A stretch of 40,785 bases of DNA from a virus, in IMG/VR virus record IMGVR_UViG_3300046007_008245, positions 1 to 40,785 of that record; one strand, given 5' to 3'. A program made the position numbers and the translations under genes. Below are positions 1,074 to 35,783 of the stretch, one piece after another. Every line of letters begins with the position of its first letter. Position 1 is the first letter of the stretch. The notes under the pieces were generated by a model. It did not search any database and was not told where the DNA came from. It worked only from the letters and a program-made list of their open reading frames with translations.

Positions 1074-1391
1074 ATGCTTAAACTAGAAATGCAACTAGCT
1101 GTTGATCCGAAATTCTTCAAGAAGTTGCCTTGGAGAGAACAAGTACAAACTATAAAGAAACTGTTGGACGAAGGAACTACAAAAGAAGACCTTGTAATTC
1201 TGCTCAATACAACTATTCGTTGGGTAAACGACGTTATTTGCGTGGCTAACTACTGGACAATCTGTAAGCACGCAGAATCGTTACAACAAGCAGTGCGTAC
1301 TGCGAATCTAAGAAAGGCGCAAGAAAAGCGCCGTAACATGGAGAAATTAGCAAGTGAAGCTCCTTCAATCACACGGACAATCCTCAGCTAA
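1074..1391 (+). CDS. Hypothetical protein with HTH-like segment, 105 aa
   Basis: Unrecognised. ATG 1074 has GGAG six bases upstream. The protein is helical and basic. Residues ~33-58 look like a helix-turn-helix (GTTKEDLVILLNTTIRWVND), and the C-terminus is a basic helix (LRKAQEKRRNMEKLA). It overlaps the start of the DNA polymerase gene by 38 bases, so the two are probably co-translated. It could be a small DNA-binding accessory or regulator of the replication cluster. It shares the HTH-like plan, but no clear sequence identity, with the gene at 381. Confidence 0.7.
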   Translation: MLKLEMQLAVDPKFFKKLPWREQVQTIKKLLDEGTTKEDLVILLNTTIRWVNDVICVANYWTICKHAESLQQAVRTANLRKAQEKRRNMEKLASEAPSITRTILS

Positions 1392-3777
1392 TGTGATGTT
1401 AGTTGGAGATTATCCAACGCAAAAAGAATATGAAGACGGCAAAGCCTTGATTGGGGGATCTTCGGATCTTCTGTCAAGGCTTTTGGCGTCTGTAGGCATA
1501 TCATTTCAAGCCGCTTGGAAGACAAGTTATTTTAAGGTACCGATTCCTGGTTTTGGTTCGCCCGACCGAAAAGTACAAAACGAAGCCTTGAAACAAGCAA
1601 GGGCAATTGCAAATTGGCGTGAAATCCTTAGCAATGAAATACGTTCCGTTAACCCGAACGTTATTATCGCTCTGGGCGAACTTGCAATGAATAATCTCAC
1701 TGGGCAGACTAAAATTGGCTTGCGGGCTGGTAGTTGGTATCCAACGGCAAGTGACTTTGGATTCGAAGAACCGTTTCGCGTACTTCCAATTCTAGCCCCG
1801 CGGGATATTTACGCAGACTGGAAGCAGTTTACATTAGCCAAAGCGGATCTATCCAAGGTAAAGCCTTATTTGCAAGCAAAACGTCCGATCGTTGAGGACT
1901 ACAGGCTATATATTGTACGCAATCCAAACGCGCTAGCGGAATTCTTTCGTAGAAACGCGCACGAGCCGTTCGTTGTGTTCGATATCGAGACGTACCGTAA
2001 CATTATTACTTGCATTGGCTTTGCGTTCAACGAGAAAGAAGCGATTAGCGTACCATTGCACGATAAAACTATTCCACCGATGGAACGCGCAATGATGTGG
2101 CGACTAGTTTGGGAGCTTCTAGCAAGTAATGTTCCCAAAGTCAACCAAAATATCAAGTTTGACTGGATGCGTTTGCAGCAACACTCCTTTATTGTTAACA
2201 ACATTATCGGAGATACAATGCTGCGAGCGTCAACATTGTATCCAGAGTTCCCGAAAGGACTCGATTTCCTAACGCGAATCTACACAAACATAGGATATTA
2301 CAAGGATGAAGGCAAGGAATACGATCCTAAATTACATGACTTCGATCGTATGCTATTATATAATGCTAAGGATTGTGTTGCTACCCTTAGAGTTTATAAC
2401 GAGCAAGAGAAGGAAATCAAAGAGCTAAAGCTACAAAAGATCAACACGCTACTTCAAAAAGCGTTCTTTGTATATAAGCGTTTGGAGAATCGCGGAATTT
2501 GCATCGACGATTCGATTCGCACTGAGTTGATCGAGAAATACGACTCGCTGATTGCGATGAACGAAGCTACGTTGAATAGCGTAGCAGGGCATAAAGTCAA
2601 TGTCAACTCGCCGCTACAGGTTGGGACGTTAATATATGAAGATCTCAAATGCCCAAAGCGTCTGAAATACAGTTCAGGTAAAACGTCTTACAAAACAGGC
2701 GAAGTAGATCTAGAAGAGTTGTATATTAATGTCATCGAAGACGAAAGCGTGGCCGATGTTCTAAAGAAGATTCTTCTTATTCGCAAGTTGTACAAAATTC
2801 GTCAGTTTCTTGACGCGATTGTGCATCCCGATGGAAAGATGCGAACGTCTTATAGGCTTTCTGGCACCACTTCCGGGCGTACTGCAACGGGAACTTCATC
2901 CGATTATATTCTTGTGGGCGAGCCTGGAAGCTACTCATGGGAAAACATGGGATTAAGTTTCCAGCAGATTCCTAAGCACGGTTTTGAGTTTGGAAACGAG
3001 ACTTATGGCAAAGACATCCGCCGTTGTTACGTACCTTCTCCCGGCTATGAGTTCATCGAAATTGACTTATCTCAGGCCGAGGCTCGCGTCGTAGATGTTC
3101 TTGCAAACGATTACGAATCTCTAGCAGAATACGAGATACTCGACAAGCACTGGAAAATGGCTAAGCTATGTTTTCCAGAGTTGGGAGAATATAACAAGAA
3201 AGACCCCGCACTAGTTCGCAAGCGTCAAATCGGTAAGACTGGAAAACACGCTAGCAACTATGACGAATCGCCTTTCGCGTTTGCAATGCGTATGCACATG
3301 CCCGTACGTGAAGCTACTAAAATTCTTACTGCGATTAGGCAAGGCAACCCTAAAATAGCTAACGTCTTTCACGCAGAAGTACGCAAAGCGTTAGATAATA
3401 CCAGAACGTTACGAACTGGATTCGGGCGTCGGCGCGAGTTTTTCGATCGCATCACGCCAGAAACCTACAAAGAAGCATACGCTTACATTCCACAAGGTAT
3501 GCTAAGCGATCACGTTAAGTTTAATATCCTTTGCAATCTCGAAGAAAATACTAGTGAATTTGCTAGGCCGTTGGTCGAGTGGCATGACTCGATTCTTAGC
3601 GAAGTAAAAATCGGCTATCGCGAACCATACATCCGCGAGTTCAAGCGCCTAGCAGCAACGCCAATTACATTCTTGGAGGGAACTTTTATTCGCGATCACC
3701 CATTAGTCATACCAATTGAAGCTGAAGTTGGAAATAGCTGGTATGACCTGAAGGGGATTTCGATAGATGGCATTTAA
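1354..3777 (+). CDS. Family A DNA polymerase with N-terminal UDG-like domain
   Basis: Replicative polymerase with 3'-5' proofreading. GTG 1354 has GGAG 10 nt upstream; the later GTG 1393 and ATG 1396 lack an SD. Domains in order: residues ~13-180 resemble a uracil-DNA-glycosylase fold (VGDYPTQKEYEDG, NVIIALGELAMNNLTG, LPILAPRDIY). Next is a DnaQ-like exonuclease with D210/E212 (VVFDIETY), NIKFD, and Y336...D340 (YNAKD). Last is the polymerase with motif A D571 (DLSQAEAR), motif B R624...K628...Y636 (RQIGKTGKHASNYD), and motif C H744-D745 (WHDS). All catalytic exonuclease and polymerase aspartates are present. The UDG-like part has no cysteine, so it lacks the Fe-S cluster of family 4/5 enzymes and may not be catalytic. 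The end overlaps the next gene by 11 bases. Confidence 0.95.
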   Translation: MKLLQSHGQSSANVMLVGDYPTQKEYEDGKALIGGSSDLLSRLLASVGISFQAAWKTSYFKVPIPGFGSPDRKVQNEALKQARAIANWREILSNEIRSVNPNVIIALGELAMNNLTGQTKIGLRAGSWYPTASDFGFEEPFRVLPILAPRDIYADWKQFTLAKADLSKVKPYLQAKRPIVEDYRLYIVRNPNALAEFFRRNAHEPFVVFDIETYRNIITCIGFAFNEKEAISVPLHDKTIPPMERAMMWRLVWELLASNVPKVNQNIKFDWMRLQQHSFIVNNIIGDTMLRASTLYPEFPKGLDFLTRIYTNIGYYKDEGKEYDPKLHDFDRMLLYNAKDCVATLRVYNEQEKEIKELKLQKINTLLQKAFFVYKRLENRGICIDDSIRTELIEKYDSLIAMNEATLNSVAGHKVNVNSPLQVGTLIYEDLKCPKRLKYSSGKTSYKTGEVDLEELYINVIEDESVADVLKKILLIRKLYKIRQFLDAIVHPDGKMRTSYRLSGTTSGRTATGTSSDYILVGEPGSYSWENMGLSFQQIPKHGFEFGNETYGKDIRRCYVPSPGYEFIEIDLSQAEARVVDVLANDYESLAEYEILDKHWKMAKLCFPELGEYNKKDPALVRKRQIGKTGKHASNYDESPFAFAMRMHMPVREATKILTAIRQGNPKIANVFHAEVRKALDNTRTLRTGFGRRREFFDRITPETYKEAYAYIPQGMLSDHVKFNILCNLEENTSEFARPLVEWHDSILSEVKIGYREPYIREFKRLAATPITFLEGTFIRDHPLVIPIEAEVGNSWYDLKGISIDGI

Positions 3778-19982: not shown

Positions 19983-20780
19983 TTATCTCCAGGACTGGGT
20001 TCCAAATTGAGGCGGAAGAACTGCTTTTCCGCGCATATTCTCAAATAGCGAATTTTGTATGCCTAGGCGTTGCCGCTTTGCAACAAAAACTCCACTATTT
20101 ATTGCCTTAAAAATCTCAAGATTAACTTCAAATCGTTTGCGATGCCACTGCGAGGCTTGCAAATCTTGACCAATTCCTTCAATACCAAAGGCTTTAGCTA
20201 AAACAGCATCCTTTATCAGGTAACGTCTTACATAAGATGGTACTCGATACACTTGAGTAGAAACATTCGGAAGCCTATAGTACTCAACAATGCAATGAGT
20301 ACTAATAGCACTATCCCAAAGACCACTTGTAGTGGGCGAGATAGCGATTCCTGGGGCTGGGAATAGCTGAATTTTATTCCATGCGTATCCCGAATATGAC
20401 CAATGATAGGGGCGTCCAGTAGTTGCGCCGGAATTATTGGAAGCGACGAAAAAAGCGTCTGAAAATGCACTTGAAAAAGCTCCAAAAAAACTAGCTGCTA
20501 TAATTTCATTTGGATACAGCGCCTGGACTTCTAATTTTGTTAACGGATATATTTTGTAGCCTAACCAAGATATCCGGCGAATGCCAACACAATCGTCTGG
20601 AAGTTGATAAAGTGGATTTCCAGCCCTAATGTCAAGTGCAAGGCGATCGACGATACATGGAATCTGTTTAACAATATCTTGTTCGGCCTCTAATGCCCAA
20701 GATTCTAGCTGGGCGGAAGTCCAAATAGTTCCATTGTCATTCAGATAACGGCGTAAGTAAGTTTCGTACTCAGTAGCCAT
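19983..20780 (-). CDS. Adaptor-like head-tail protein 2, 265 aa
   Basis: The N-terminal helices (YETYLRRYLNDNGTIWTSAQ, LESWALEAEQDIVKQIP) followed by YQLPDDCVGIRRISWLGYKI match the general plan of phage head-tail adaptor proteins: helical N-terminus, beta 'DFxRxxxVxxxGxxL' strand pair, helical C-terminus (VRRYLIKDAVLAKAFG). It overlaps the first adaptor-like gene by 11 bases. Two consecutive adaptors below the portal fit a short-tailed virion. The assignment rests on pattern and position. Confidence 0.6.
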   Translation of the reverse strand: MATEYETYLRRYLNDNGTIWTSAQLESWALEAEQDIVKQIPCIVDRLALDIRAGNPLYQLPDDCVGIRRISWLGYKIYPLTKLEVQALYPNEIIAASFFGAFSSAFSDAFFVASNNSGATTGRPYHWSYSGYAWNKIQLFPAPGIAISPTTSGLWDSAISTHCIVEYYRLPNVSTQVYRVPSYVRRYLIKDAVLAKAFGIEGIGQDLQASQWHRKRFEVNLEIFKAINSGVFVAKRQRLGIQNSLFENMRGKAVLPPQFGTQSWR

Positions 20781-21408
20781 AGCGCATTTCTCGCAAACGA
20801 TAGATTAAAGCAGGTAAAGAACGAACGCGAGTTCTTCGAGCGGCACCTTCTACGCCTTCTAACGCATCTTTCCACATCAATCCGGCTTTATTATATTCTC
20901 GCGCCTGTTCTAGTAGATCGGCAGTTGCATAATGCTCTATGACAGGAGATAAATCGGAAGGAAACGGCAAAGAAGATGAGCTGGTTAACGTTTCTGGACG
21001 AGCTTTATAAAATACTCGCATCGTTCCGTTAGTTGTAGGTGGGCGCGGAACAATCACAATTCTACGGTGGTCTACAGGAGTGAAAAACGCAGGAGGCCCG
21101 TTCCATACTTCCCAATCGTCTCGAATCAAATCGTAGTCGGACAGGATTTGTGGAATGAGCCAGCGATTAATTTGATTGTTGTAGACTTGTGTAACGGAGT
21201 AATAGTCCGCGATTAAAGAGAAAAGATCGTAATAGCCAACGTTAGCCTGAAACGGAACATCAACAAATTTTTCTACTAACCCTGTTTTTGTTATTACTTG
21301 ATCACATCCGTCTTGGATCGCGTCAAGTATGTCAGTGTCCGTGTAGAACGTAATGTTTTGATCGGCTAAGTTACTGCGAATGTCGGCTTGGAGAGTAGAT
21401 ACGAGCAT
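20770..21408 (-). CDS. Adaptor-like head-tail protein 1, 212 aa
   Basis: Begins MLVSTLQADIRSNLADQNIT, then TDTDILDAIQDGCDQVITKT, then a beta section (YYDLFSLIADYYSVTQVYNN) and a helical end (VIEHYATADLLEQAREYNKA). This is the usual layout of phage adaptor proteins that line the portal exit. No SD directly precedes ATG 21408: a terminator-like hairpin and T-run sit immediately upstream, with GGAGG beyond it (21456-21460). Translation may therefore rely on hairpin bridging or on the U-rich leader. Confidence 0.65.
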   Translation of the reverse strand: MLVSTLQADIRSNLADQNITFYTDTDILDAIQDGCDQVITKTGLVEKFVDVPFQANVGYYDLFSLIADYYSVTQVYNNQINRWLIPQILSDYDLIRDDWEVWNGPPAFFTPVDHRRIVIVPRPPTTNGTMRVFYKARPETLTSSSSLPFPSDLSPVIEHYATADLLEQAREYNKAGLMWKDALEGVEGAARRTRVRSLPALIYRLREMRYGY

Positions 21409-21460
21409 AAATAAAAAAAGGGCACAACGAGACTCTATCGCTGTACCCCTTATAACCTCC
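21409..21460 (-). terminator. Terminator-like hairpin inside a ribosome-binding region
   Basis: On the minus strand GGAGG (21460-21456) is followed by an imperfect stem (21451-21438 with 21430-21418, sharing AAGGG/CCCTT, ACA/TGT and CGA/TCG), then TTTTTATTT and ATG 21408. It looks like a rho-independent terminator separating the methyltransferase from the adaptor gene. It also lies between SD and start codon as in the gene at 381. Confidence 0.65.
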
Positions 21461-21491: not shown

Positions 21492-22019
21492 TTAGAAGTT
21501 GAAGTTAATCTTCGCGGCTTGTTCGTGGCTAAGAAAGGAGCCTTTTTTAGCTTTAATTGTGGTATTCCAAAACTCGTCAGGTTCTGAAGCAACCACAAGA
21601 TCCTTGAAGCCAACCCGCGTTAACTTCGTGGTTACGTATTTTGTATCCATCAACGCAACGTGCGTATCAGCTGGATACAATTGCCGTCCGTAGATCGTCG
21701 CTTCCCAGAAATCTCGTTTGCCATAGAGATTCTCCTGATAGCATTTGACGCAAGTGAGAAATTCTGGGTAGCTAAGATAAAAGAAGCAGTCTGGCTTCAA
21801 AACCCTAGCTACTTCGTAGAAGATCGCCTCGTGTAGAGCTTTCTTCACATGTTCAATTACATGAAACATGTAAACGGCATCGACAGAAGAAGTATCGTAC
21901 GGAAGTGCCTTAGTGAAATCAGCGACTAGATCTGGATTGTTGCTTTCTTCGATATCAATGTTAACACAACCTGGAATCTTGTTCGATCCACAACCAAGAT
22001 TTAACTTGAGGGGAAGCAT
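21492..22019 (-). CDS. Class I SAM-dependent methyltransferase, 175 aa
   Basis: Motif I is LNLGCGSNKIPGCVNIDI (residues 6-23), followed by the acidic strand end VNIDIEES, then DAVYMFHVIEHV and a post-IV region (EVARVLKPDCFFYLSYPEF). This is the layout of small SAM methyltransferases of the kind found in sugar or lipid-carrier modification clusters. The substrate is unknown. It overlaps the glycosyltransferase by 19 bases, so the pair is translated together. Its position between coat and adaptor genes suggests modification of virion glycans or host surface sugar. No DNA-methyltransferase (D/N)PPY motif is present. Confidence 0.8.
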   Translation of the reverse strand: MLPLKLNLGCGSNKIPGCVNIDIEESNNPDLVADFTKALPYDTSSVDAVYMFHVIEHVKKALHEAIFYEVARVLKPDCFFYLSYPEFLTCVKCYQENLYGKRDFWEATIYGRQLYPADTHVALMDTKYVTTKLTRVGFKDLVVASEPDEFWNTTIKAKKGSFLSHEQAAKINFNF

Positions 22020-22714
22020 TTTTCCAAATACTCCTTGCCCCGATCAATCTCAGTTGACGGTTTGTCTTTCTTGTGATATTCGCGAAGCTTTTTTACAGTA
22101 GAAACGTGAGCAACTTCTGGATCAAGAATATGGCCCGTCGGAACTTTTGTATCTACAAAGATAGATACGTGCTCCCCGATTTCGGCCTTTGCTTTGCAAC
22201 AGAAGTAAACGTCTTCGGTGCTTCCAGATACAGTTAAAAAATAAGGCGGCTCAAGCTGCTTCAGGATAGACGTTTTGAGAAGCACCGTTGCAAAGCCAAT
22301 CGCTTGAGCTTCAACAAGACCATTTTCGTCGACATGTTCTTCCCAGTCAGTATAATATGTAAGGTCATAGCCACCGGATTTGGGAAGTTTCTTAAAGAAC
22401 ATTGGAGGAAACCCGCCGCCACGAATAAACGTGAGTGCCATCACAATATCTTTATCGGCTTTTAAGAGAGATTCAAAAGTGTCAGGATGAAGCAACATAT
22501 CATCATCAATAAACATGAGATAGTCGCATTCAAGCTCCAGAGCAACTTTTGCAGCTGCGTTTCGCATGTTATCAATTGACATGCGCGACGGAGGCATAAA
22601 ATAAAACTGGACGTCGGGATGTTTTTTACCAAGCCGATACCAGAATTGACAATGAGAAGAGTAGGCCAAGTGATGAACACTTGTAAGAACGTTTGTGCCA
22701 ATTAGGATTTTCAT
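22001..22714 (-). CDS. Family 2-like glycosyltransferase, 237 aa
   Basis: GT-A fold features: an N-terminal strand MKILIGTNVLTSVHHLAYS, a DDD metal-binding motif (LMFIDDDMLLH, D70-D72), AQAIGFATVLLKTSIL as the acceptor-side strand, and a late acidic TEDVYFC motif typical of the GT2 catalytic base region. A His (GHILDPEVAH) follows. Probable UDP- or other NDP-sugar transferase. Acceptor unknown: a capsid or decoration protein, or a host glycan, are candidates. The start lies 9 nt beyond a strong hairpin whose 5' arm holds the only SD-like sequence. Confidence 0.75.
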   Translation of the reverse strand: MKILIGTNVLTSVHHLAYSSHCQFWYRLGKKHPDVQFYFMPPSRMSIDNMRNAAAKVALELECDYLMFIDDDMLLHPDTFESLLKADKDIVMALTFIRGGGFPPMFFKKLPKSGGYDLTYYTDWEEHVDENGLVEAQAIGFATVLLKTSILKQLEPPYFLTVSGSTEDVYFCCKAKAEIGEHVSIFVDTKVPTGHILDPEVAHVSTVKKLREYHKKDKPSTEIDRGKEYLEKCFPSS

Positions 22715-22723
22715 AAGAATTGT

Positions 22724-22743
22724 GGGGGAGATTTCTCTCCCCC
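22724..22743 (-). promoter_or_regulatory. Hairpin before the glycosyltransferase start
   Basis: GGGGGAGA/TCTCCCCC form a perfect 8-bp stem with a TTTC or GAAA loop, located between the decoration-like gene and ATG 22714. On the minus strand the 5' arm contains GGGGGAG, so folding would sequester the only SD-like sequence. There is no U-run, so attenuation of translation or mRNA end protection fits better than termination. Confidence 0.6.
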
Positions 22744-22746
22744 TAG

Positions 22747-23274
22747 TTACATCGCGCGAACAAAACCACGAATCAGCGTGACATCTGCCAGGCGAGTATC
22801 GTTAGTGCCAGCGGAGCTAGAAACAAGAGTAGTAGCAGAAGCAAAAGTTTGCCCAGCCATTACACCAGCAAGAAACGCACTAGCAGCACCGGTAGCCGAG
22901 AAAGTAAATGCATTCTGGTTAGTCACAACAGACAATAGATTTCCTGCAGCGATTGCCGGCGTAGAACCCCAAGCATCCGTACTAGCGGCGCGAGTTGCAC
23001 GAACTAGACGAATGTTCGAAGCGAAACCGAAAACAATTGCAGGACCAATTGCACCAGCGGGAATTGCAGTACCAGCGACACCAGCGAACATGCTAGTTGC
23101 AAGACCAGCACCACCAGTAGCGGGAAGAACAACATTAACGCCATCGTTCGTTCCGTTAAAAACGAAACACATCGGCGCACCTTCGGGAATAGTTGCCGAT
23201 GTTTCGCCATTTCGGACACGAATAATTGCGTCTTCAGCGGGAGTATCAGTTCCGGTAAGTTGATGAATTCTCAT
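22747..23274 (-). CDS. Putative capsid decoration protein, 175 aa
   Basis: It lies 2 bases after the coat protein gene. The sequence is rich in Ala, Gly, Thr and Val with beta-strand alternation (SATIPEGAPMCFVFNGTNDG, AGTAIPAGAIGPAIVFGFAS). Proteins of this composition directly behind the coat gene are commonly head decoration/cement or DUF2190-like proteins. No cysteine cluster or catalytic motif is visible. The assignment is mainly positional. Confidence 0.55.
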   Translation of the reverse strand: MRIHQLTGTDTPAEDAIIRVRNGETSATIPEGAPMCFVFNGTNDGVNVVLPATGGAGLATSMFAGVAGTAIPAGAIGPAIVFGFASNIRLVRATRAASTDAWGSTPAIAAGNLLSVVTNQNAFTFSATGAASAFLAGVMAGQTFASATTLVSSSAGTNDTRLADVTLIRGFVRAM

Positions 23275-23276
23275 AA

Positions 23277-24356
23277 TTATGCCAGCGAGCGAGCGATATT
23301 ACCCATCACGCCCTGCTTCCTCCGATTGTTGCAAGTCATATTGCCCATCCAAAGAATGTGAGCAACGCGAGCCGTCTGATTGGCTGGTTTAGTAAACGGC
23401 GTGGAAATGAAATTGCTTTCCACGTCGTAACGAACCTTGAGGAAATTTGTGTTCAGGAAAAATGCAGTACCTCGCCCAGTAGAAGAGGTATCGAGATTGT
23501 TATCCGCCACGTTAGGAACGCGCTCGTCCCAAACAACCATAGCGCCGTTGAACATAAAGTTCGGGAACGGATAGTCATTGCGCTCGGGAACTTGCGTCCG
23601 GTAGTATTGCGTATAAGCCGAACGCCACAATTCCCAAGTAAGTTGATCCGTAAGAATAAGATCCGGCTTGCCTCCAGTACCGCGAGAGCAAGCGTTAAAA
23701 ATGCTATCGCAGCGAAGAAGAAAAGCGTTAGCGGTTACAGCAACGCCACCGAAGTTAGATGTCTGATTGCGCCAATAAGTCGAAGTAGACTGATTGATGC
23801 CACCAATTGTCAACGATGCGGCGGGATTATATGCAACCTGCAAAGGAAGCGGATCAATCGCAGTCGCACCATTCAACGGATTGCTAGCGGGAACAACGAG
23901 AGAAGTACCGCCAGTTGCGTAACTTCCCTGCAAAAGAGCCTGAACAAAAGCCTCTTCAATTCCCATTTCAGCCTGCTTAACTTTCGTCTTAAACATCGAC
24001 GCAATGCGAGCACGGCCGACATTAATACGCTCTTCACGACGCGAAATACTAATCGGCGCCGCAAGTTCACGCCAATCATAAAACGCCGCCGTAACACCAT
24101 CCGTAGGATCAGTGCTAAGCGTATCGTAACCGCTATACCACTCCGCCGGCGTAAGTCCGATCATCAAGTTTTCTTGAATCGAGACACCGCCTTCAGCAGA
24201 TTCGTACATCCCCTTTTCTTTCAAACGCATAAAAATAGCGTTCGACTTGGCGATGTTATCTGCCATCTGACTACCATAATTCATGAGCGTTTGCGACAGC
24301 AACGCATCATAAATAATAGTGTTAGAAGTACCACTACCACTGCCGTAACTAGGCAT
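23277..24356 (-). CDS. Major capsid protein, 359 aa
   Basis: HK97-fold coat protein by context and pattern. The N-arm helix (MADNIAKSNAIFMRLKEKGM) leads into EGGVSIQENLMIG, then the E-loop-like YDTLSTDPTDG, and a P-domain with long helix (RARIASMFKTKVKQAEMGIE). The A-domain contains DLILTDQLTWELWRSAYTQY and MVVWDERVP. It follows the scaffold gene and precedes the decoration-like gene, the standard head order. AGGAGC lies before ATG 24356. No protease gene or processing site is apparent. Confidence 0.85.
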   Translation of the reverse strand: MPSYGSGSGTSNTIIYDALLSQTLMNYGSQMADNIAKSNAIFMRLKEKGMYESAEGGVSIQENLMIGLTPAEWYSGYDTLSTDPTDGVTAAFYDWRELAAPISISRREERINVGRARIASMFKTKVKQAEMGIEEAFVQALLQGSYATGGTSLVVPASNPLNGATAIDPLPLQVAYNPAASLTIGGINQSTSTYWRNQTSNFGGVAVTANAFLLRCDSIFNACSRGTGGKPDLILTDQLTWELWRSAYTQYYRTQVPERNDYPFPNFMFNGAMVVWDERVPNVADNNLDTSSTGRGTAFFLNTNFLKVRYDVESNFISTPFTKPANQTARVAHILWMGNMTCNNRRKQGVMGNIARSLA

Positions 24357-24365
24357 AAATGCTCC

Positions 24366-25145
24366 TTAATTTTTGATCTCAGCAAGAGCCATTTCGATAG
24401 CTTCATCAAGTGACAAAGCTGCCGTTGGTTTAGTTGCCGAAGGTCTTACTGCCCTGGACGCTTTAACGTCATTCTTTATGTTTGACTCAGCGCGCTGAGT
24501 TCTTTTTTGCGCAGCGCCAGAAGTAGCGAGGGCGTGCATTTCGGTAAGATACTTTTGATACGTTCCCTTACCCTGATACGGATAAGTTTTCATTTTATCT
24601 AGGATTAAGGACTCGTTCGTCTTGAACCCTTCCAACGAATTATAAGCCCAATCCAGCGCCTTGTCAACCTCTTTTTTTCGAGATTCGAACTCGGCCTGTT
24701 CTAGCTTTGTTTCCAACGGTTTAAGGGCCTGTGACACCTTCAGGTCTAACACTTTTGCTAGCGCGGCCGCTAGTTTGTCGCCCGCGACGAGTTCGAAGTC
24801 ATCCCCAAGCTCTTCCTTGAGAATATCAACAAGTTCAACGGCGATTTCTTTTTTGTCACTTACAGTAGCTTCTTTAATTTCCGAGAGCGTGTAACCCGCG
24901 TTGCGAACCATCTGGTTGATGGTGTCGACGGAAGTTTTTGGATTACTCAGTTGTTTGTAAAGCTGCTTTGCTTTTTCAAGTTGCTCCGCCGTGAACTCCT
25001 CGTCACCAGCTTCTTCCTCAGAATCCTCTTCTTCGGTTTCTTCCGTTTCGGTAGTTTCCTCAGTTACTTCTTCAGTAGATTCAGGGGCTTTTTCTTCCTG
25101 CTCAATCGCATTGTTAACGGCTTCGTCAAGAGTCATTTTGCTCAT
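24366..25145 (-). CDS. Capsid scaffold protein, 259 aa
   Basis: Highly charged and helical: a very acidic N-terminal tract (residues ~15-50), a leucine-rich coiled-coil middle (LKPLETKLEQAEFESRKKEV) and a basic C-terminal part (SGAAQKRTQRAESNIKNDVK). This is the usual profile of an assembly scaffold between portal and coat genes. The N- and C-termini carry similar motifs, LDEAVNNAIEQ and LDEAIEMALAE. Start ATG 25145 overlaps the stop of the 28-aa gene as ATGA; AAGGATC is 7 nt upstream. Confidence 0.85.
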   Translation of the reverse strand: MSKMTLDEAVNNAIEQEEKAPESTEEVTEETTETEETEEEDSEEEAGDEEFTAEQLEKAKQLYKQLSNPKTSVDTINQMVRNAGYTLSEIKEATVSDKKEIAVELVDILKEELGDDFELVAGDKLAAALAKVLDLKVSQALKPLETKLEQAEFESRKKEVDKALDWAYNSLEGFKTNESLILDKMKTYPYQGKGTYQKYLTEMHALATSGAAQKRTQRAESNIKNDVKASRAVRPSATKPTAALSLDEAIEMALAEIKN

Positions 25146-25229: not shown

Positions 25230-27083
25230 TTATGCGGCTCCTTGCATATCGGTTGGAAGTCCAACTTGATTTTGCATCGTGTTGGTGACTTGTTCCATGT
25301 TTGGCGGTGTAGCGGCCGCCATTGTACGTTGCGATGCCATTTGATTTAACGCATCTTCTGCCTGCGCTTGCTGCCCGAGTTGTGCAACTAGCGCCATTTT
25401 CTGCGCTTCGATAATTACACTCTCGGCACGCACATCTACTTTCTCAGCAAGATGACGAATAAGTTCCGGCGAGAAGGCTAGTTGCGGATACTGATTTAGC
25501 GCGGCTAAGAACTCGAAGAATGCATTTTTTTCGCGTTCATTTTCTATGGGCGAAATAGTCGAAAGCGATACTTCAACATCAAAATCAAAATTCTCGTCTA
25601 AATCGGTTACTGGATCAATTTGCTGGTATACCGCCTGTATATTTTGCATCTCCTGAAACGTACCGGGAGTTTGCGCCGAAACCTTAACCCAGAAAGGTAG
25701 AGTAAGTTTTTCAGCTTGCAACTTAGCGATCTCAGTAATAATCTCATTGATCCAATTCGACGTTTGCGCATTTATACGGGACTCGCGAATTGACGTTCTA
25801 GCGTCAATAATTTTACTTTGAGTTGCAGTCTGGCGATCAGCTTGAAGTCTTTGTTCAGCGCTCGTTCCAGAAACCGTGTTAAAGTCATCGCGAGACGTTG
25901 CCATCGCATTCATGACTTCGGCACCAACAGTCGGTAACGGAACTGGTTGAATTGCTTCAGATAAAGAGCCTACAACGGTTGAACAAGTTCCATCAAAACC
26001 GTCCATCAATTTGTCAATTTCTTCTTCGCTAAGAAACGATCCATCACGAATAATGAACTTGCGCAAGAATCTTTTACGGAACGAACGCAACTGCTCTTTC
26101 GCTTCGTTGTATTCGTCCTGCGCCGACTTCCATTGCGATGCGGGCGGAATCGGGTAGAACGAATCAGGAACTTTAGCTCGACGCGAATAGCGCAAAATTT
26201 TTAATGGACAACGTACAAAGTCAATTGACGCTAAAAGAATGCGCTCAGCGTACGCAATAACGTGACGTTTCTTTGCGCGTAGATCAAAGATATGAAGAAT
26301 TTTAATGCAATCGCCATTAGTGCGGGTTTCAGGCTCTTCTTCGTCGGCTAGACCACCGACAAAATCGCTGCTAACGGCATTGGCGTAGAGGACATTGTCT
26401 AGTTTGTTCTTGAATGCCGGAACTGCTTTAAGGTCGGAAATTCTCTGATATTCCCAATAGCCGCACCAATCGTTATTTTCGAGTTTCCAGCGCGAGTTAC
26501 CACAAATGCGAAAACGCCTCGGATTAATGTTCCGGACGTAAATGTTTTCGTAGTCAGGAAGAGTTTTTGCGTCGGCTAACGTATAGTCGTTGGTCGAATC
26601 AATTTCTGTATTGTTATCGCTTGCTAAAATTGGACGAGGCGCTTTTGGATTGACAATCCAACTCGCATCGTAACCAACTTCGACAATGCCAAAGCGAAAT
26701 TGCGCGTCAATAATGCCTTGTTCTACGACGCCTGTGAAATCATTATTAGGGTCGGCTAGAAATTGATTGCACGCATCTTCCCGTAACTTAGCTTGAGAAT
26801 ACGCCTTATCAGGATTCCAGTCGGTTTTGCTTGGTTTTGGCTTAAAAACCGCCTTGGGGTTAATAAACGCCATTCCCGGCAGCTTCGCTTCGATAGTTGC
26901 ATAGATTAAGTTAGCTACATAAGGCTCTGCATTAGGTGGAACGTTATCCCATTGCGCACCTTCGTAGTAATCCGCCATTTGCCGGCAACGAAAATTTGCT
27001 TCCCAACGCTCAAAATACTCGCGCGTGTTATCGAAACGAGTCGCCCACGCCGTCGCTATGTCTTCGGACTTAACCTTGGCCAT
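25230..27083 (-). CDS. Portal protein, 617 aa
   Basis: Size, position after TerL and sequence pattern fit a portal. It has an N-terminal helix with WATRFDNTREYFERWEANFR, AEPYVANLIYATIEAKLPG, the wing region with PDYENIYVRNINPRRFRICG and DNDWCGYWEYQRISDLK-like segments, the stem-like KSAQDEYNEAKEQLRSFRKR, and a C-terminal helical barrel-like end. The C-terminus is Q/M-rich. It would form the dodecameric DNA channel at one capsid vertex. It overlaps the terminase gene by 14 bases. Confidence 0.85.
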   Translation of the reverse strand: MAKVKSEDIATAWATRFDNTREYFERWEANFRCRQMADYYEGAQWDNVPPNAEPYVANLIYATIEAKLPGMAFINPKAVFKPKPSKTDWNPDKAYSQAKLREDACNQFLADPNNDFTGVVEQGIIDAQFRFGIVEVGYDASWIVNPKAPRPILASDNNTEIDSTNDYTLADAKTLPDYENIYVRNINPRRFRICGNSRWKLENNDWCGYWEYQRISDLKAVPAFKNKLDNVLYANAVSSDFVGGLADEEEPETRTNGDCIKILHIFDLRAKKRHVIAYAERILLASIDFVRCPLKILRYSRRAKVPDSFYPIPPASQWKSAQDEYNEAKEQLRSFRKRFLRKFIIRDGSFLSEEEIDKLMDGFDGTCSTVVGSLSEAIQPVPLPTVGAEVMNAMATSRDDFNTVSGTSAEQRLQADRQTATQSKIIDARTSIRESRINAQTSNWINEIITEIAKLQAEKLTLPFWVKVSAQTPGTFQEMQNIQAVYQQIDPVTDLDENFDFDVEVSLSTISPIENEREKNAFFEFLAALNQYPQLAFSPELIRHLAEKVDVRAESVIIEAQKMALVAQLGQQAQAEDALNQMASQRTMAAATPPNMEQVTNTMQNQVGLPTDMQGAA

Positions 27084-28575
27084 AATGTTTATTAAAATAT
27101 CCTGATTTGTGTAACGCTTTTACCATTTTACGAGCATAGCCCATAGTTCCTGGCTCGTACTTTTTGCGAGGCTCTTTCAAACCTAATGCGTGCGACGCGA
27201 CGTAATAACGAAGCGGATCGTATGCATGATCAGGCACTTTTTTGTCGCGTTCATCGGAAAAAATTGACTTTCCGTTGATAGTATCTAACAAATCACGTTT
27301 TTGCGCTCGAATTTGATAGATAACGTGCTCGACGCCGTCAGAATGCGCACTCGATTTCGCGATAAATAACAACTTCGAACAGCCAATGTCCCCAGTGAAG
27401 GGATTTTTTAACGATGGATCTTTACGAAGCCATTCATTTATGCGATTTCTCGTCGCAAATTCGTTGTTATCGGCCGGATTCCACGCAATTCGCGGCGCGT
27501 CAATGGATGGGTCTACGTATTCGTCCGCAACGCACCAAAAACCACCATGCTTTTGCGACGCTTTCTTAAAAATCGCCGGATCAGCTAAGTTATTTATGTA
27601 GGTTTCGCCCTCACTTAACGCCGAAATTGCACGTCGGTGATGACTAATTAATTGTCCTGGCGAATAGTACTCTCGATAACATACGTGAACTCCCCCAAAA
27701 ACTCCAAACCACAAACAACATGTAGGAGCACTATCGCCATGGTCCATAGCGCGATATAAAGCAGCTTTGGATAAGAAATTTTTAAGCTGTTCTTTAGAAA
27801 CATGAAGCACCGATTCAGGGGGAACGATGTGAATTGAACCTTCGCCAACTCCCCATTTACCTTGAAAAAATCGCGCAACCCATTCGGGATCGCGCGACTT
27901 CATTTGTTCAATAGTATCTGGCGTATACATTGATTCGTCGGTACCCCGCTCGACGTAATCATGTGTACGGTGAAATTTTTCTTTCCACTCAGGCGAATCT
28001 GGATGATATCGACGCCATACCCAGTGAAATTCCACGTCTGGGTTAACAAGTATCATCATGTAACTTGGCGCTTGCGGCCGCCCCAAGGAATCGCGAGGAT
28101 AATCCGGTGTTAGCAGATGCTCTGGAATCTTTGCTTGATCCCAACGCCCGATACGAGCATCCAAAGTTAAATAAACACTTTCGTCAATTTCTTCAGCCTG
28201 ATCTATTAAAACTGAATTAATTTCTAGGCCACGAAGCGACATTTCGTTCACTTCGTCTAAATGCATCCACAAAATAGAAGAGCCATTCTTGAAGATCGTG
28301 ATGCCGTCGATCTCAGAATGGCGCTCTATAAATTCTGATTTTTTACCCTCTGGCAACAATTTGAAGAACGTTGCCATTGTTGTAGATTTAAGCGACTTGA
28401 AAGTCTTACGGGCGATTACGCTTCGATACCCAGGGAACGTCAGGGAGAGGAGTAAGATTTTCTGACATCCTGTATATGATTTGCCGTTGCCATAACCGCC
28501 CGAAAAACACGAATTACGTTTAGTGAAGTTAAAAAAAGTTTCTTGCGCTTCGTTTCTAAACGTAATGTTAAGCAC
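27070..28575 (-). CDS. Terminase large subunit, 501 aa, GTG start
   Basis: DNA-packaging motor. Walker A is GGYGNGKS (residues 26-33); the Walker B strand is SVLIDQAEEI, with D125 and the catalytic-type E128/E129, but Q126 where E is common. The C-terminal nuclease shows RAMDHGDSAPTCCLWFG, and DHAYDPLRYYVAS with the final acidic residue. GTG 28575 has GGAGG at a 7-8-nt spacing supplied by a 22-bp repeat element (28584-28605) shared with the gene at 35817. It overlaps the portal gene. Confidence 0.9.
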   Translation of the reverse strand: MLNITFRNEAQETFFNFTKRNSCFSGGYGNGKSYTGCQKILLLSLTFPGYRSVIARKTFKSLKSTTMATFFKLLPEGKKSEFIERHSEIDGITIFKNGSSILWMHLDEVNEMSLRGLEINSVLIDQAEEIDESVYLTLDARIGRWDQAKIPEHLLTPDYPRDSLGRPQAPSYMMILVNPDVEFHWVWRRYHPDSPEWKEKFHRTHDYVERGTDESMYTPDTIEQMKSRDPEWVARFFQGKWGVGEGSIHIVPPESVLHVSKEQLKNFLSKAALYRAMDHGDSAPTCCLWFGVFGGVHVCYREYYSPGQLISHHRRAISALSEGETYINNLADPAIFKKASQKHGGFWCVADEYVDPSIDAPRIAWNPADNNEFATRNRINEWLRKDPSLKNPFTGDIGCSKLLFIAKSSAHSDGVEHVIYQIRAQKRDLLDTINGKSIFSDERDKKVPDHAYDPLRYYVASHALGLKEPRKKYEPGTMGYARKMVKALHKSGYFNKHYGQG

Positions 28576-34226: not shown

Positions 34227-35783
34227 ATGACACACTGTAACTCATGCAAGAAACTGCAATCTATCGCAGAAACTAAAGTAGTCTATGGCAAATCATTGCA
34301 CAAACTAGCTTGTGGACATCTCGTTCCAGTATTGAACATAACGCAAGCAACTCCAATCATCGAAGAACCAATCATCGAAGAGATTATTCCAGACAATTGG
34401 CGTAAAGCATATGCATATCAACGTGACGGCGTGCTATGGGCCGAAGCTAACGGAATTCGTTGTCTCATTGCAGACGAGCCGGGATTAGGTAAGACGGTGC
34501 AAGCGTTGCTATTGCTTGATCGTAATTACGTCAAGTTAACACCAACGCTAATCATTGTTCCAGCCGCATTAACTTTGCAATGGTATCGTTTCTGCAATAC
34601 GTGGCTATCGTCGCATAACCTTAAAGTTAAGCCTATTATGCACGTTGGCGAGGGTTTTGAGATTATGCCAGATGAAAACATTGTCATCATCTCAAGCGCT
34701 TTAATCGCGCATCCCAAAACACTCAAGTCAATTAAAGAATACGGATTTAAGTGTATTATTGCAGACGAATCTCACCATTTCAAGTCTGAGAAAGCGTCTC
34801 GTACACAAGCGTTCGTTGAAATATGCGAAGCTATTGAGCACGTTATTTTATTAAGCGGTACTCCACTAGTTAACAACGTCATGGAGTATTACACTACGCT
34901 CAAAGTACTAAACAACTCGCATTGGTACAATCGCTACAATCTTGCGAGACTTTGCGATACGGATTCCAAAGGTAAATTACTGGGAATCCGCGAATACAAC
35001 CGCCAGTGGTTCTTCGAGCGGATTAGTAAGTATGTAATTCGCCGGCAGAAAAAAGACCATCTCAAGGATTTACCATCGTTTCGTCGCGACAAAACGTTTC
35101 TCAATTCCGACGATAAATTGTATGTCAAAACGTACAATATGTATGCAGACTTGATCGAAGACTGTATTACTAAAAATGACTTCTCGCAAGTCATTGGCAT
35201 TCTAGCAAAGATTCGTCACATTACCGGATTAGTTAAAATCAAAGCCGTCTACGAGAAAGTTATCGAACTAATCGAGGGTACCGATGGCAAGATTTGCATT
35301 GGCGTGCATCACCAATCCGTTGCAACGCGATTGATTGATATGCTAACAGCATATGCCAATGAAGTAGGCGACGATTCGTTGATTCCATTATCCATGAATA
35401 GTTCGCAGAGTGTTTTTGAGAAACAAGCTGTCGAAGATAAGTTTAGAAATGAGAAGCGTATTCTCGTCGCGTCGATTCTTGCAACCGCTGAAGGTCGTAA
35501 CATGCAGTTCTGTAATCAAGTCATCATTGCAGAACGCGAGTGGAATCCAGCCAAAGAAGAACAATTCGAACAACGTTTCTGGCGCAATGGTCAAACGCTT
35601 CCTGTTACCGCTGAGTATTTTATGGTAAAAAACACTCTCGATGAATGGTTAGACGAGATTGTAGATATGAAGCGTGAGGTTGTTAACAGTGGCGCAGACG
35701 AAAACATTGCTATTAATTACGATCTTATGCGCGTACTTGCCGGACGTATCACCAATACACGTTTGAGAGTTGCGGGCGTGTAG
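34227..35783 (+). CDS. SNF2-type superfamily 2 helicase, 518 aa
   Basis: ATP-dependent DNA translocase. An N-terminal zinc-knuckle (C4-x2-C7, C29-G-H31) is followed by the Q-like YAYQRDGVLWAEANG. Motif I is IADEPGLGKT (81-90), motif II is ADESHHF (179-185, DESH variant of DEAH), motif III is LLSGTPLVNN, and motif VI is QRFWRNGQ (449-456). Phage SNF2 proteins are thought to act in replication or recombination, or to displace bound proteins. No SD is visible before ATG 34227; a terminator sits directly upstream. The Walker lysine (K89) and arginine finger region are intact. Confidence 0.9.
   Translation: MTHCNSCKKLQSIAETKVVYGKSLHKLACGHLVPVLNITQATPIIEEPIIEEIIPDNWRKAYAYQRDGVLWAEANGIRCLIADEPGLGKTVQALLLLDRNYVKLTPTLIIVPAALTLQWYRFCNTWLSSHNLKVKPIMHVGEGFEIMPDENIVIISSALIAHPKTLKSIKEYGFKCIIADESHHFKSEKASRTQAFVEICEAIEHVILLSGTPLVNNVMEYYTTLKVLNNSHWYNRYNLARLCDTDSKGKLLGIREYNRQWFFERISKYVIRRQKKDHLKDLPSFRRDKTFLNSDDKLYVKTYNMYADLIEDCITKNDFSQVIGILAKIRHITGLVKIKAVYEKVIELIEGTDGKICIGVHHQSVATRLIDMLTAYANEVGDDSLIPLSMNSSQSVFEKQAVEDKFRNEKRILVASILATAEGRNMQFCNQVIIAEREWNPAKEEQFEQRFWRNGQTLPVTAEYFMVKNTLDEWLDEIVDMKREVVNSGADENIAINYDLMRVLAGRITNTRLRVAGV

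What the first reader, a model, noticed from the sequence alone, without database searches (positions are those of the whole stretch)
21492..22714. Glycosyltransferase and methyltransferase embedded in the head-assembly genes
An overlapping pair with a GT2-like DDD motif and a LNLGCG-type SAM motif sits between coat/decoration and adaptor genes. Being late-expressed with virion proteins, the pair may glycosylate and methylate capsid or decoration proteins, or remodel host surface sugars to block superinfection.
Basis: partly seen in the sequence, partly recalled or inferred. Interest (0 to 1): 0.6.

Follow-up and report, generated by a model that had tools for sequence, protein, structure and literature searches.

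The report
Phage capsid-linked sugar and methyl transferases
This virus of bacteria carries, between its shell-decoration gene and its tail-connector genes, a conserved pair of enzymes that most likely attach a sugar to its own shell proteins and then add a methyl group; nearly all related viruses found in environmental samples keep the sugar enzyme in this slot, and most keep both.

Summary
The - strand encodes a 237-aa glycosyltransferase (GT, 22001-22714) and a 175-aa SAM methyltransferase (MT, 21492-22019), overlapping by 19 nt, between a decoration protein (fold-verified) and two SU10-type adaptors. They are not random cargo. In a coat-protein-based sample, 56 of 60 distinct related contigs carry the GT in this slot and 46 of 60 carry both genes. 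Catalytic residues are nearly invariant: DxD, ED and C-terminal His in 74-76 of 76 GTs; HxxEH in 63 of 63 MTs. Sixteen relatives also encode a second, fused GT-MT in one reading frame. The GT model (pLDDT 92) is closest to STIV A197, a viral GT thought to glycosylate its coat, and to the collagen galactosyltransferase fold. A new feature is a terminator-like hairpin at the decoration-GT junction (41 of 67 relatives, 2.2 expected), which would keep the enzymes scarcer than the shell proteins. Best explanation: the pair puts a methylated O-glycan on virion proteins, most likely the decoration protein, as the unrelated enzymes of Corndog-type mycobacteriophages do. The acceptor and sugar are unproven, and a co-evolution test for the acceptor was inconclusive. 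I rate it a new variant of a known kind.

The parts
22001..22714 (-). GT-A fold glycosyltransferase, 237 aa (DDD 70-72, TED 166-168, C-terminal His195)
   Evidence: ORF; AF2 model pLDDT 92; PDB fold matches A197 and collagen GTs; near-invariant residues in 76 relatives
22499..22507 (-). Asp-Asp-Asp (DxD) codons of the GT, predicted metal and nucleotide-sugar site
   Evidence: D70 75/76, D71 72/76, D72 75/76
21492..22019 (-). class I SAM-dependent methyltransferase, 175 aa
   Evidence: Methyltransf_11 above curated cut-off; H53, E56, H57 in 63/63 relatives
21987..22004 (-). LNLGCG SAM-binding motif of the MT
   Evidence: G11 62/63, G9 51/63; lost in relative L018, which reads LNLCSRD
22724..22743 (-). 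perfect 8-bp GC-rich hairpin GGGGGAGA-GAAA-TCTCCCCC between decoration stop codon and GT start codon (attenuator-like)
   Evidence: -17.3 kcal/mol, z -2.3; terminator-like hairpin at the same junction in 41/67 relatives vs 2.2 expected
21417..21451 (-). strong intrinsic-terminator-like hairpin directly after the MT and before the adaptor genes
   Evidence: 14 pairs, T-rich tail; found at this junction in few relatives (2 of 18, 1 of 11)
22747..23274 (-). capsid decoration protein, proposed acceptor
   Evidence: AF2 model pLDDT 85; PDB matches HFTV1 Z 11.1, FCWL1 Z 10.1, T1 Z 9.6, lambda gpD Z 6.4
22795..22857 (-). Ser/Thr-rich C-terminal loop of the decoration protein (about residues 140-160), candidate O-glycosylation site (inferred)
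   Evidence: conserved S/T columns; S/T fraction 0.31 in 82 GT-bearing relatives vs 0.15 in GT-less L201
23277..24356 (-). major capsid protein, alternative acceptor
   Evidence: PHROG 9953 major head protein E 9e-46
20770..21408 (-). head-tail adaptor, downstream boundary of the cassette
   Evidence: Pfam SU10_adaptor 52 bits
19983..20780 (-). second SU10-type adaptor
   Evidence: Pfam SU10_adaptor 40.7 bits

Best explanation
The pair is a virion-glycosylation cassette. Shown by sequence and model: the GT is a GT-A fold transferase with intact DxD, ED and C-terminal His motifs, and the MT is a class I SAM methyltransferase. They are coupled (overlapping frames, fused in relatives) and fixed between the decoration and adaptor genes. 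Inferred: during late expression, coat and decoration protein are made in bulk, while a hairpin at the decoration-GT junction lets only part of the transcription or translation continue into GT-MT, giving catalytic amounts of enzyme. The GT takes a nucleotide-sugar from the host and transfers the sugar to Ser/Thr of a head protein, most likely the exposed Ser/Thr-rich loop of the decoration protein. The MT then O-methylates that sugar. The product would be a particle covered in methylated glycans, which could change stability, adsorption, or recognition by surface binders and predators. Confidence for 'acts on virion protein' is about 0.62; for 'the decoration protein is the main acceptor' about 0.35.
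For: Retention: 56/60 coat-ascertained contigs have the GT between deco and adaptor and 46/60 have both, while the stretch between MT and adaptor varies from overlap to several kb. Slot conservation at 38-53% identity. Distant GT homologues in the same coat-to-adaptor slot with P22-type coat (L009) and SU10-type coat (MW202496, MW202711). Catalytic residues near-invariant and purifying selection. GT+MT fused in 16 loci and GT stop to MT start within -30..+5 nt in 53/69. Best folds: STIV A197 (Z 19.9, 2.4 A over 172 residues), a viral GT proposed to act on its glycosylated coat, plus LH3/COLGALT1, Mnn9 and Mimivirus R699. GT D168 aligns with A197 D151, whose mutation to Glu delays STIV replication. 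Decoration fold confirmed. Junction hairpin 41/67 vs 2.2 expected, and 1/90 at coat-deco. Precedent: Corndog-type O-MT plus GTs among head genes, with virion glycosylation reported.
Against: No biochemical or mass-spectrometric evidence for any of these phages. Position alone could reflect an insertion-tolerant slot. The co-evolution test did not single out an acceptor: Pearson distances grouped deco, GT and MT, but rank correlations with bootstrap left most differences overlapping zero, and GT tracks the coat at least as well as deco. Relatives lacking the MT keep the same loop Ser/Thr content. L201, with neither gene, shows the cassette is not indispensable. Fold similarity does not fix donor or acceptor. 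L018's MT has lost its glycine motif.
Confidence: 0.62

Rival explanations
1. Host-surface remodelling: GT and MT modify a host glycan (O-antigen, capsule or a lipid-linked sugar) late in infection, blocking superinfection or re-adsorption of progeny to debris.
For: Many phage GTs act on host O-antigen (established knowledge). GT-A/GT2 enzymes of surface polysaccharides, such as TarP and RmlT, are among the lower fold matches.
Against: The window GT model is a single compact domain with no extra membrane part. No flippase or Gtr-like partner and no integrase among the proteins scanned (not every small ORF was scanned). The gene is locked into the head module at a fixed slot in most relatives rather than roaming.
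Confidence: 0.14
2. The slot is a moron hotspot: the pair is cargo of varied function that persists because the site tolerates insertions.
For: Extra genes of variable number lie between the MT and adaptor in many relatives. L201, L123 and the named relatives with known hosts (Mx8, BUCT555) lack the GT.
Against: GT in 56/60 and GT+MT in 46/60 relatives, while other slot content changes. GT distances correlate with coat distances (Pearson 0.61, 0 of 999 permutations as high). Strong purifying selection.
Confidence: 0.1
3. Modification of another virion part, such as tail fibre or adaptor, rather than capsid or decoration. Still virion glycosylation, but with a tail acceptor.
For: A second GT or fused GT-MT lies on the tail side of the adaptors in some relatives, and mycobacteriophages glycosylate both capsid and tail tube.
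Against: The head-slot pair has its own conserved position directly behind the decoration gene, and the window itself has a single copy.
Confidence: 0.08
4. DNA hypermodification: the GT glycosylates modified bases in phage DNA and the MT methylates DNA or the base sugar.
For: Weak PHROG 842 (HMC-alpha-glucosyltransferase) match, E 0.003. Viral GTs that modify DNA are known (reference).
Against: No base hydroxylase, hydroxymethylase or other base-precursor gene among the proteins scanned. The MT matches small-molecule and glycan MT families, not DNA MTs. The genes lie in the late head module, not with replication genes.
Confidence: 0.05

Closest known systems
Corndog/Firecracker (cluster O mycobacteriophage) O-methyltransferase plus three glycosyltransferases between portal and capsid protease
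   Same: GT and O-MT genes embedded among head genes. Proposed in 2015 to modify the capsid, and virion glycosylation was later reported for Che8, Corndog and Myrna.
   Different: No detectable homology: best BLASTP E 0.34 and HMM E 0.005 (4.5 bits) between the window GT and Firecracker gp35, nothing for the MT. The slot differs (portal-protease vs decoration-adaptor), and there is one GT rather than three.
STIV A197 (crenarchaeal virus GT-A glycosyltransferase, PDB 2c0n)
   Same: Closest solved fold (Z 19.9, 2.4 A, 172 residues, 20% identity). A minimal viral GT, essential, proposed to glycosylate the virus's own coat protein. Catalytic Asp aligned.
   Different: Different virus class and coat fold, and low sequence identity.
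Collagen hydroxylysine galactosyltransferase COLGALT1/GLT25D1 and LH3
   Same: GT-A fold of protein O-glycosyltransferases; COLGALT1 gives the best PDB sequence matches (E 5e-5, DxD region only).
   Different: Large multidomain eukaryotic enzymes acting on hydroxylysine; the LH3 match is to residues 296-538, not its whole chain. The acceptor need not be the same.
PHROG 1574 (unknown function)
   Same: The window GT and the distant head-slot GT homologues match it (E 1e-7 to 9e-23).
   Different: It has no assigned function; this work suggests a virion-associated GT family.
lambda gpD / HFTV1 / T1-type capsid decoration proteins
   Same: Fold of the adjacent decoration protein.
   Different: The window protein has a conserved Ser/Thr-rich C-terminal loop and companion GT-MT genes.

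Membership tests
Phage virion-glycosylation cassette (Corndog type) | GT and O-MT genes inside the head/structural gene cluster | tested here: met
Phage virion-glycosylation cassette (Corndog type) | enzymes homologous to Corndog-cluster gp33-gp36 | tested here: not met
   BLASTP best E 0.34; HMM best E 0.005, 4.5 bits. So it works like this system by location and gene content but is not a sequence member.
Phage virion-glycosylation cassette (Corndog type) | covalent glycan on capsid or tail protein, lost in GT mutants | not testable with these tools
   needs virions
GT-A fold glycosyltransferase | GT-A Rossmann-like fold | tested here: met
   A197 Z 19.9, LH3 Z 18.1, Mnn9 Z 16.1
GT-A fold glycosyltransferase | DxD, xED and C-terminal His motifs | tested here: met
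   D70/D72 75/76, E167 74/76, D168 75/76, H195 75/76
Pfam GT2 (PF00535) | score above curated cut-off | tested here: not met
   17.2 bits vs 23.3; it is a GT-A enzyme, not a formal GT2 member
Class I SAM methyltransferase (PF08241) | score above curated cut-off | tested here: met
   35.8 vs 21.2 bits
Class I SAM methyltransferase (PF08241) | glycine-rich motif I | tested here: met
   LNLGCG in window; G11 in 62/63 relatives, exception L018
gpD-like capsid decoration protein (neighbour gene) | decoration-protein fold | tested here: met
   top matches are all capsid decoration proteins, Z up to 11.1; Foldseek E only 0.003
Gtr-type serotype-converting cassette | membrane flippase GtrA and bactoprenol GT GtrB partners | tested here: inconclusive
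   none seen among the proteins scanned; no membrane predictor was run and not all small ORFs were scanned
Phage DNA-glucosylation system | modified-base precursor enzymes in the genome | tested here: inconclusive
   none found in Pfam scans; not every small ORF scanned

The most novel reading that the evidence does not exclude
A deep clade of uncultured tailed phages builds glyco-decorated capsids: a dedicated GT-MT pair adds an O-methylated sugar to a Ser/Thr-rich loop of a gpD-like decoration protein, with enzyme dose set by an attenuator hairpin behind the decoration gene. Some of these phages carry a second, fused GT-MT for a tail-side acceptor.
Probability: 0.3. Interest if true: 0.7.

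Novelty: new variant of a known kind. Interest (0 to 1): 0.52.

Why it matters
In the papers I could read, phage virion glycosylation is reported for only a few phages, mainly mycobacterial ones. If right, it is a near-universal trait of a broad environmental phage clade, made by an unrelated enzyme pair. It would give a likely function to PHROG 1574 and a testable rule: a GT-MT between decoration and adaptor genes means a glycosylated head. It also offers a small GT-MT pair, some naturally fused, for making glycosylated nanoparticles, and a comparison of head-side and tail-side pairs within one phage.

Tried and rejected
Co-evolution to identify the acceptor: simple Pearson distance correlations suggested a deco-GT-MT block, but rank correlations with bootstrap did not hold most differences; only the deco-MT, GT-MT and GT-coat partial correlations stayed above zero. 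I do not use it as support for deco. Loop Ser/Thr content as an acceptor marker: only one complete GT-less relative with the same loop (L201) was found; it is low (0.15, at or below all but 1 of 82), but n is 1, and relatives with and without MT do not differ. The first loop slice was misaligned and is not used. Homology to Corndog-cluster enzymes: none. Host identification: no coat relative in bacterial genome contigs; named phages with similar coats (Mx8, BUCT555, Ruegeria, Rhizobium and others) are at most 30% identical, and the ones I checked lack the GT and MT. A conserved terminator after the MT: present in the window, rare in relatives. Defence-system, tRNA and Rfam searches: nothing.

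Full report
WHAT IS THERE. The window is a 40,785-base virus record with a late operon on the - strand: terminase 27070-28575, a 617-aa protein in the portal position 25230-27083 (no family hit), a scaffold-like acidic protein 24366-25145 (assigned by position), coat 23277-24356, decoration 22747-23274, GT 22001-22714, MT 21492-22019, two SU10-type adaptors 20770-21408 and 19983-20780, then tail genes. The two ORFs of the finding are real and at the stated coordinates.

IDENTITY OF THE PARTS. The MT passes Pfam Methyltransf_11; the GT is below Pfam cut-offs, so the fold was predicted from a 71-sequence alignment (pLDDT 92.4). The model is a GT-A fold. Best solved relatives are A197 of the archaeal virus STIV (Z 19.9, 2.4 A over 172 residues), human LH3 (aligned to residues 296-538), yeast Mnn9, Mimivirus R699 and COLGALT1. 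Profile search of PDB sequences independently gives COLGALT1 (E 5e-5, DxD region) and A197 (E 0.001). The alignment places A197 Asp151 on window Asp168; the D151E mutation in STIV delays replication, and A197 is described as essential and possibly acting on the glycosylated coat (PMC10551542).

CONSERVATION. Relatives were collected from IMG/VR by GT, MT and coat profiles and annotated with iterated HMMs. To avoid bias from searching with the GT, I counted presence in the coat-ascertained set: 75 distinct clusters, 60 with at least 3 kb downstream of the coat gene; 56 have the GT between decoration and adaptor and 46 have GT and MT. One limit: the second coat profile (A7) was largely built from loci first found with the GT. 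The exceptions are L201 (a 41.8-kb record with no GT), L123, and the distant L132 and L133. Catalytic residues are near-invariant: R51 76/76, D70 75/76, D72 75/76, E167 74/76, D168 75/76, H195 75/76; in the MT, H53, E56 and H57 63/63. Against L017, 30 of 33 changed GT codons are synonymous in the 66 codons available.

GT AND MT ACT TOGETHER. GT stop and MT start lie within -30 to +5 nt in 53 of 69 cases, most often a 4-nt overlap. Sixteen relatives carry a second copy in which GT and MT are one polypeptide (L003:7753-8895; MT domain above Pfam cut-off). Natural fusion is strong evidence for a joint pathway.

SAME SLOT IN OTHER HEAD MODULES. More distant members of the GT family (PHROG 1574, unknown function) lie between coat and adaptor in L009 (P22-type coat, PF11651, followed by head-tail adaptor Ad3) and between coat and the next virion structural gene in two SU10-coat phages from Manatee Spring, MW202496 and MW202711. 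Named phages with a related coat but without GT (Mx8, BUCT555, MW202803) show a head gene order without the pair.

A HAIRPIN AT THE DECORATION-GT JUNCTION. Between the decoration stop and the GT start the window has a perfect 8-bp GC-rich hairpin (22743-22724; -17.3 kcal/mol, z -2.3). In relatives, a hairpin followed by a T-rich tail occurs at this junction in 41 of 67 regions against 2.2 expected from shuffles, but in 1 of 90 coat-decoration and 0 of 71 scaffold-coat regions. The T-run often ends a few bases before the GT start codon, leaving little room for a separate promoter, so the GT and MT are probably expressed by read-through. This resembles the terminator behind the T7 coat gene (from general knowledge). 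In the window the tail is weak, and a strong terminator-like hairpin instead follows the MT (21451-21417).

MECHANISM. Shown: fold, motifs, coupling, slot, hairpin. Inferred: host nucleotide-sugar as donor; transfer to Ser/Thr of a head protein; O-methylation of the sugar by the MT; enzymes kept scarce by the hairpin. The decoration protein is the favoured acceptor because it is the adjacent gene, lies on the capsid surface by fold, and has a conserved Ser/Thr-rich C-terminal loop. The one complete GT-less relative with the loop, L201, has replaced most of those residues (S/T 0.15; only 1 of 82 GT-bearing relatives is as low). That is n of 1 and a lead only. Distance correlations did not settle deco versus coat.

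COMPARISON WITH WHAT IS KNOWN. Cluster O mycobacteriophages carry an O-methyltransferase and three GTs between portal and protease, suggested in 2015 to modify the capsid (PMC4351075); glycosylation of Che8, Corndog and Myrna virions was reported later (Freeman et al. 2023, read here only through PMC12363180, PMC11256854 and PMC11600133). The window enzymes have no detectable homology to the Firecracker versions. So this works like a known system but is not a sequence member of it: a new variant of a known kind.

LIMITS. No virion exists to assay; sugar, acceptor and linkage are unknown; only contigs in the collections were sampled; hosts are unidentified; the Cell Host Microbe paper itself could not be read.

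Noticed in passing
window 22724-22743 (-) and the deco-GT junctions of relatives: Terminator-like hairpin between decoration gene and GT in 41 of 67 relatives (2.2 expected), almost absent from neighbouring junctions.
   Followed up: yes
L003:7753-8895; also L043, L051, L065, L067, L102, L117, L119, L121, L124 and others: A second GT fused to an MT in one ORF in 16 relatives, before or after the adaptor genes; absent from the window.
   Followed up: partly
L018:8377-8919: An MT relative whose glycine-rich SAM motif has decayed (LNLCSRD) while the rest of the family signature is kept: either inactive or an altered cofactor site.
   Followed up: no
window 1354-3777: Family A DNA polymerase with an N-terminal uracil-DNA glycosylase domain and 3'-5' exonuclease in one protein.
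   Followed up: no
window 34227-35783: SNF2-type helicase in the early region.
   Followed up: no
L191:9199-10704, L130:9169-10593, L162:9786-11333: Related coats whose head-slot GT is a longer ORF (475-515 aa); L191 carries a fused MT domain, and these decoration proteins lack the Ser/Thr loop: a possible alternative pairing of GT type and decoration type.
   Followed up: partly
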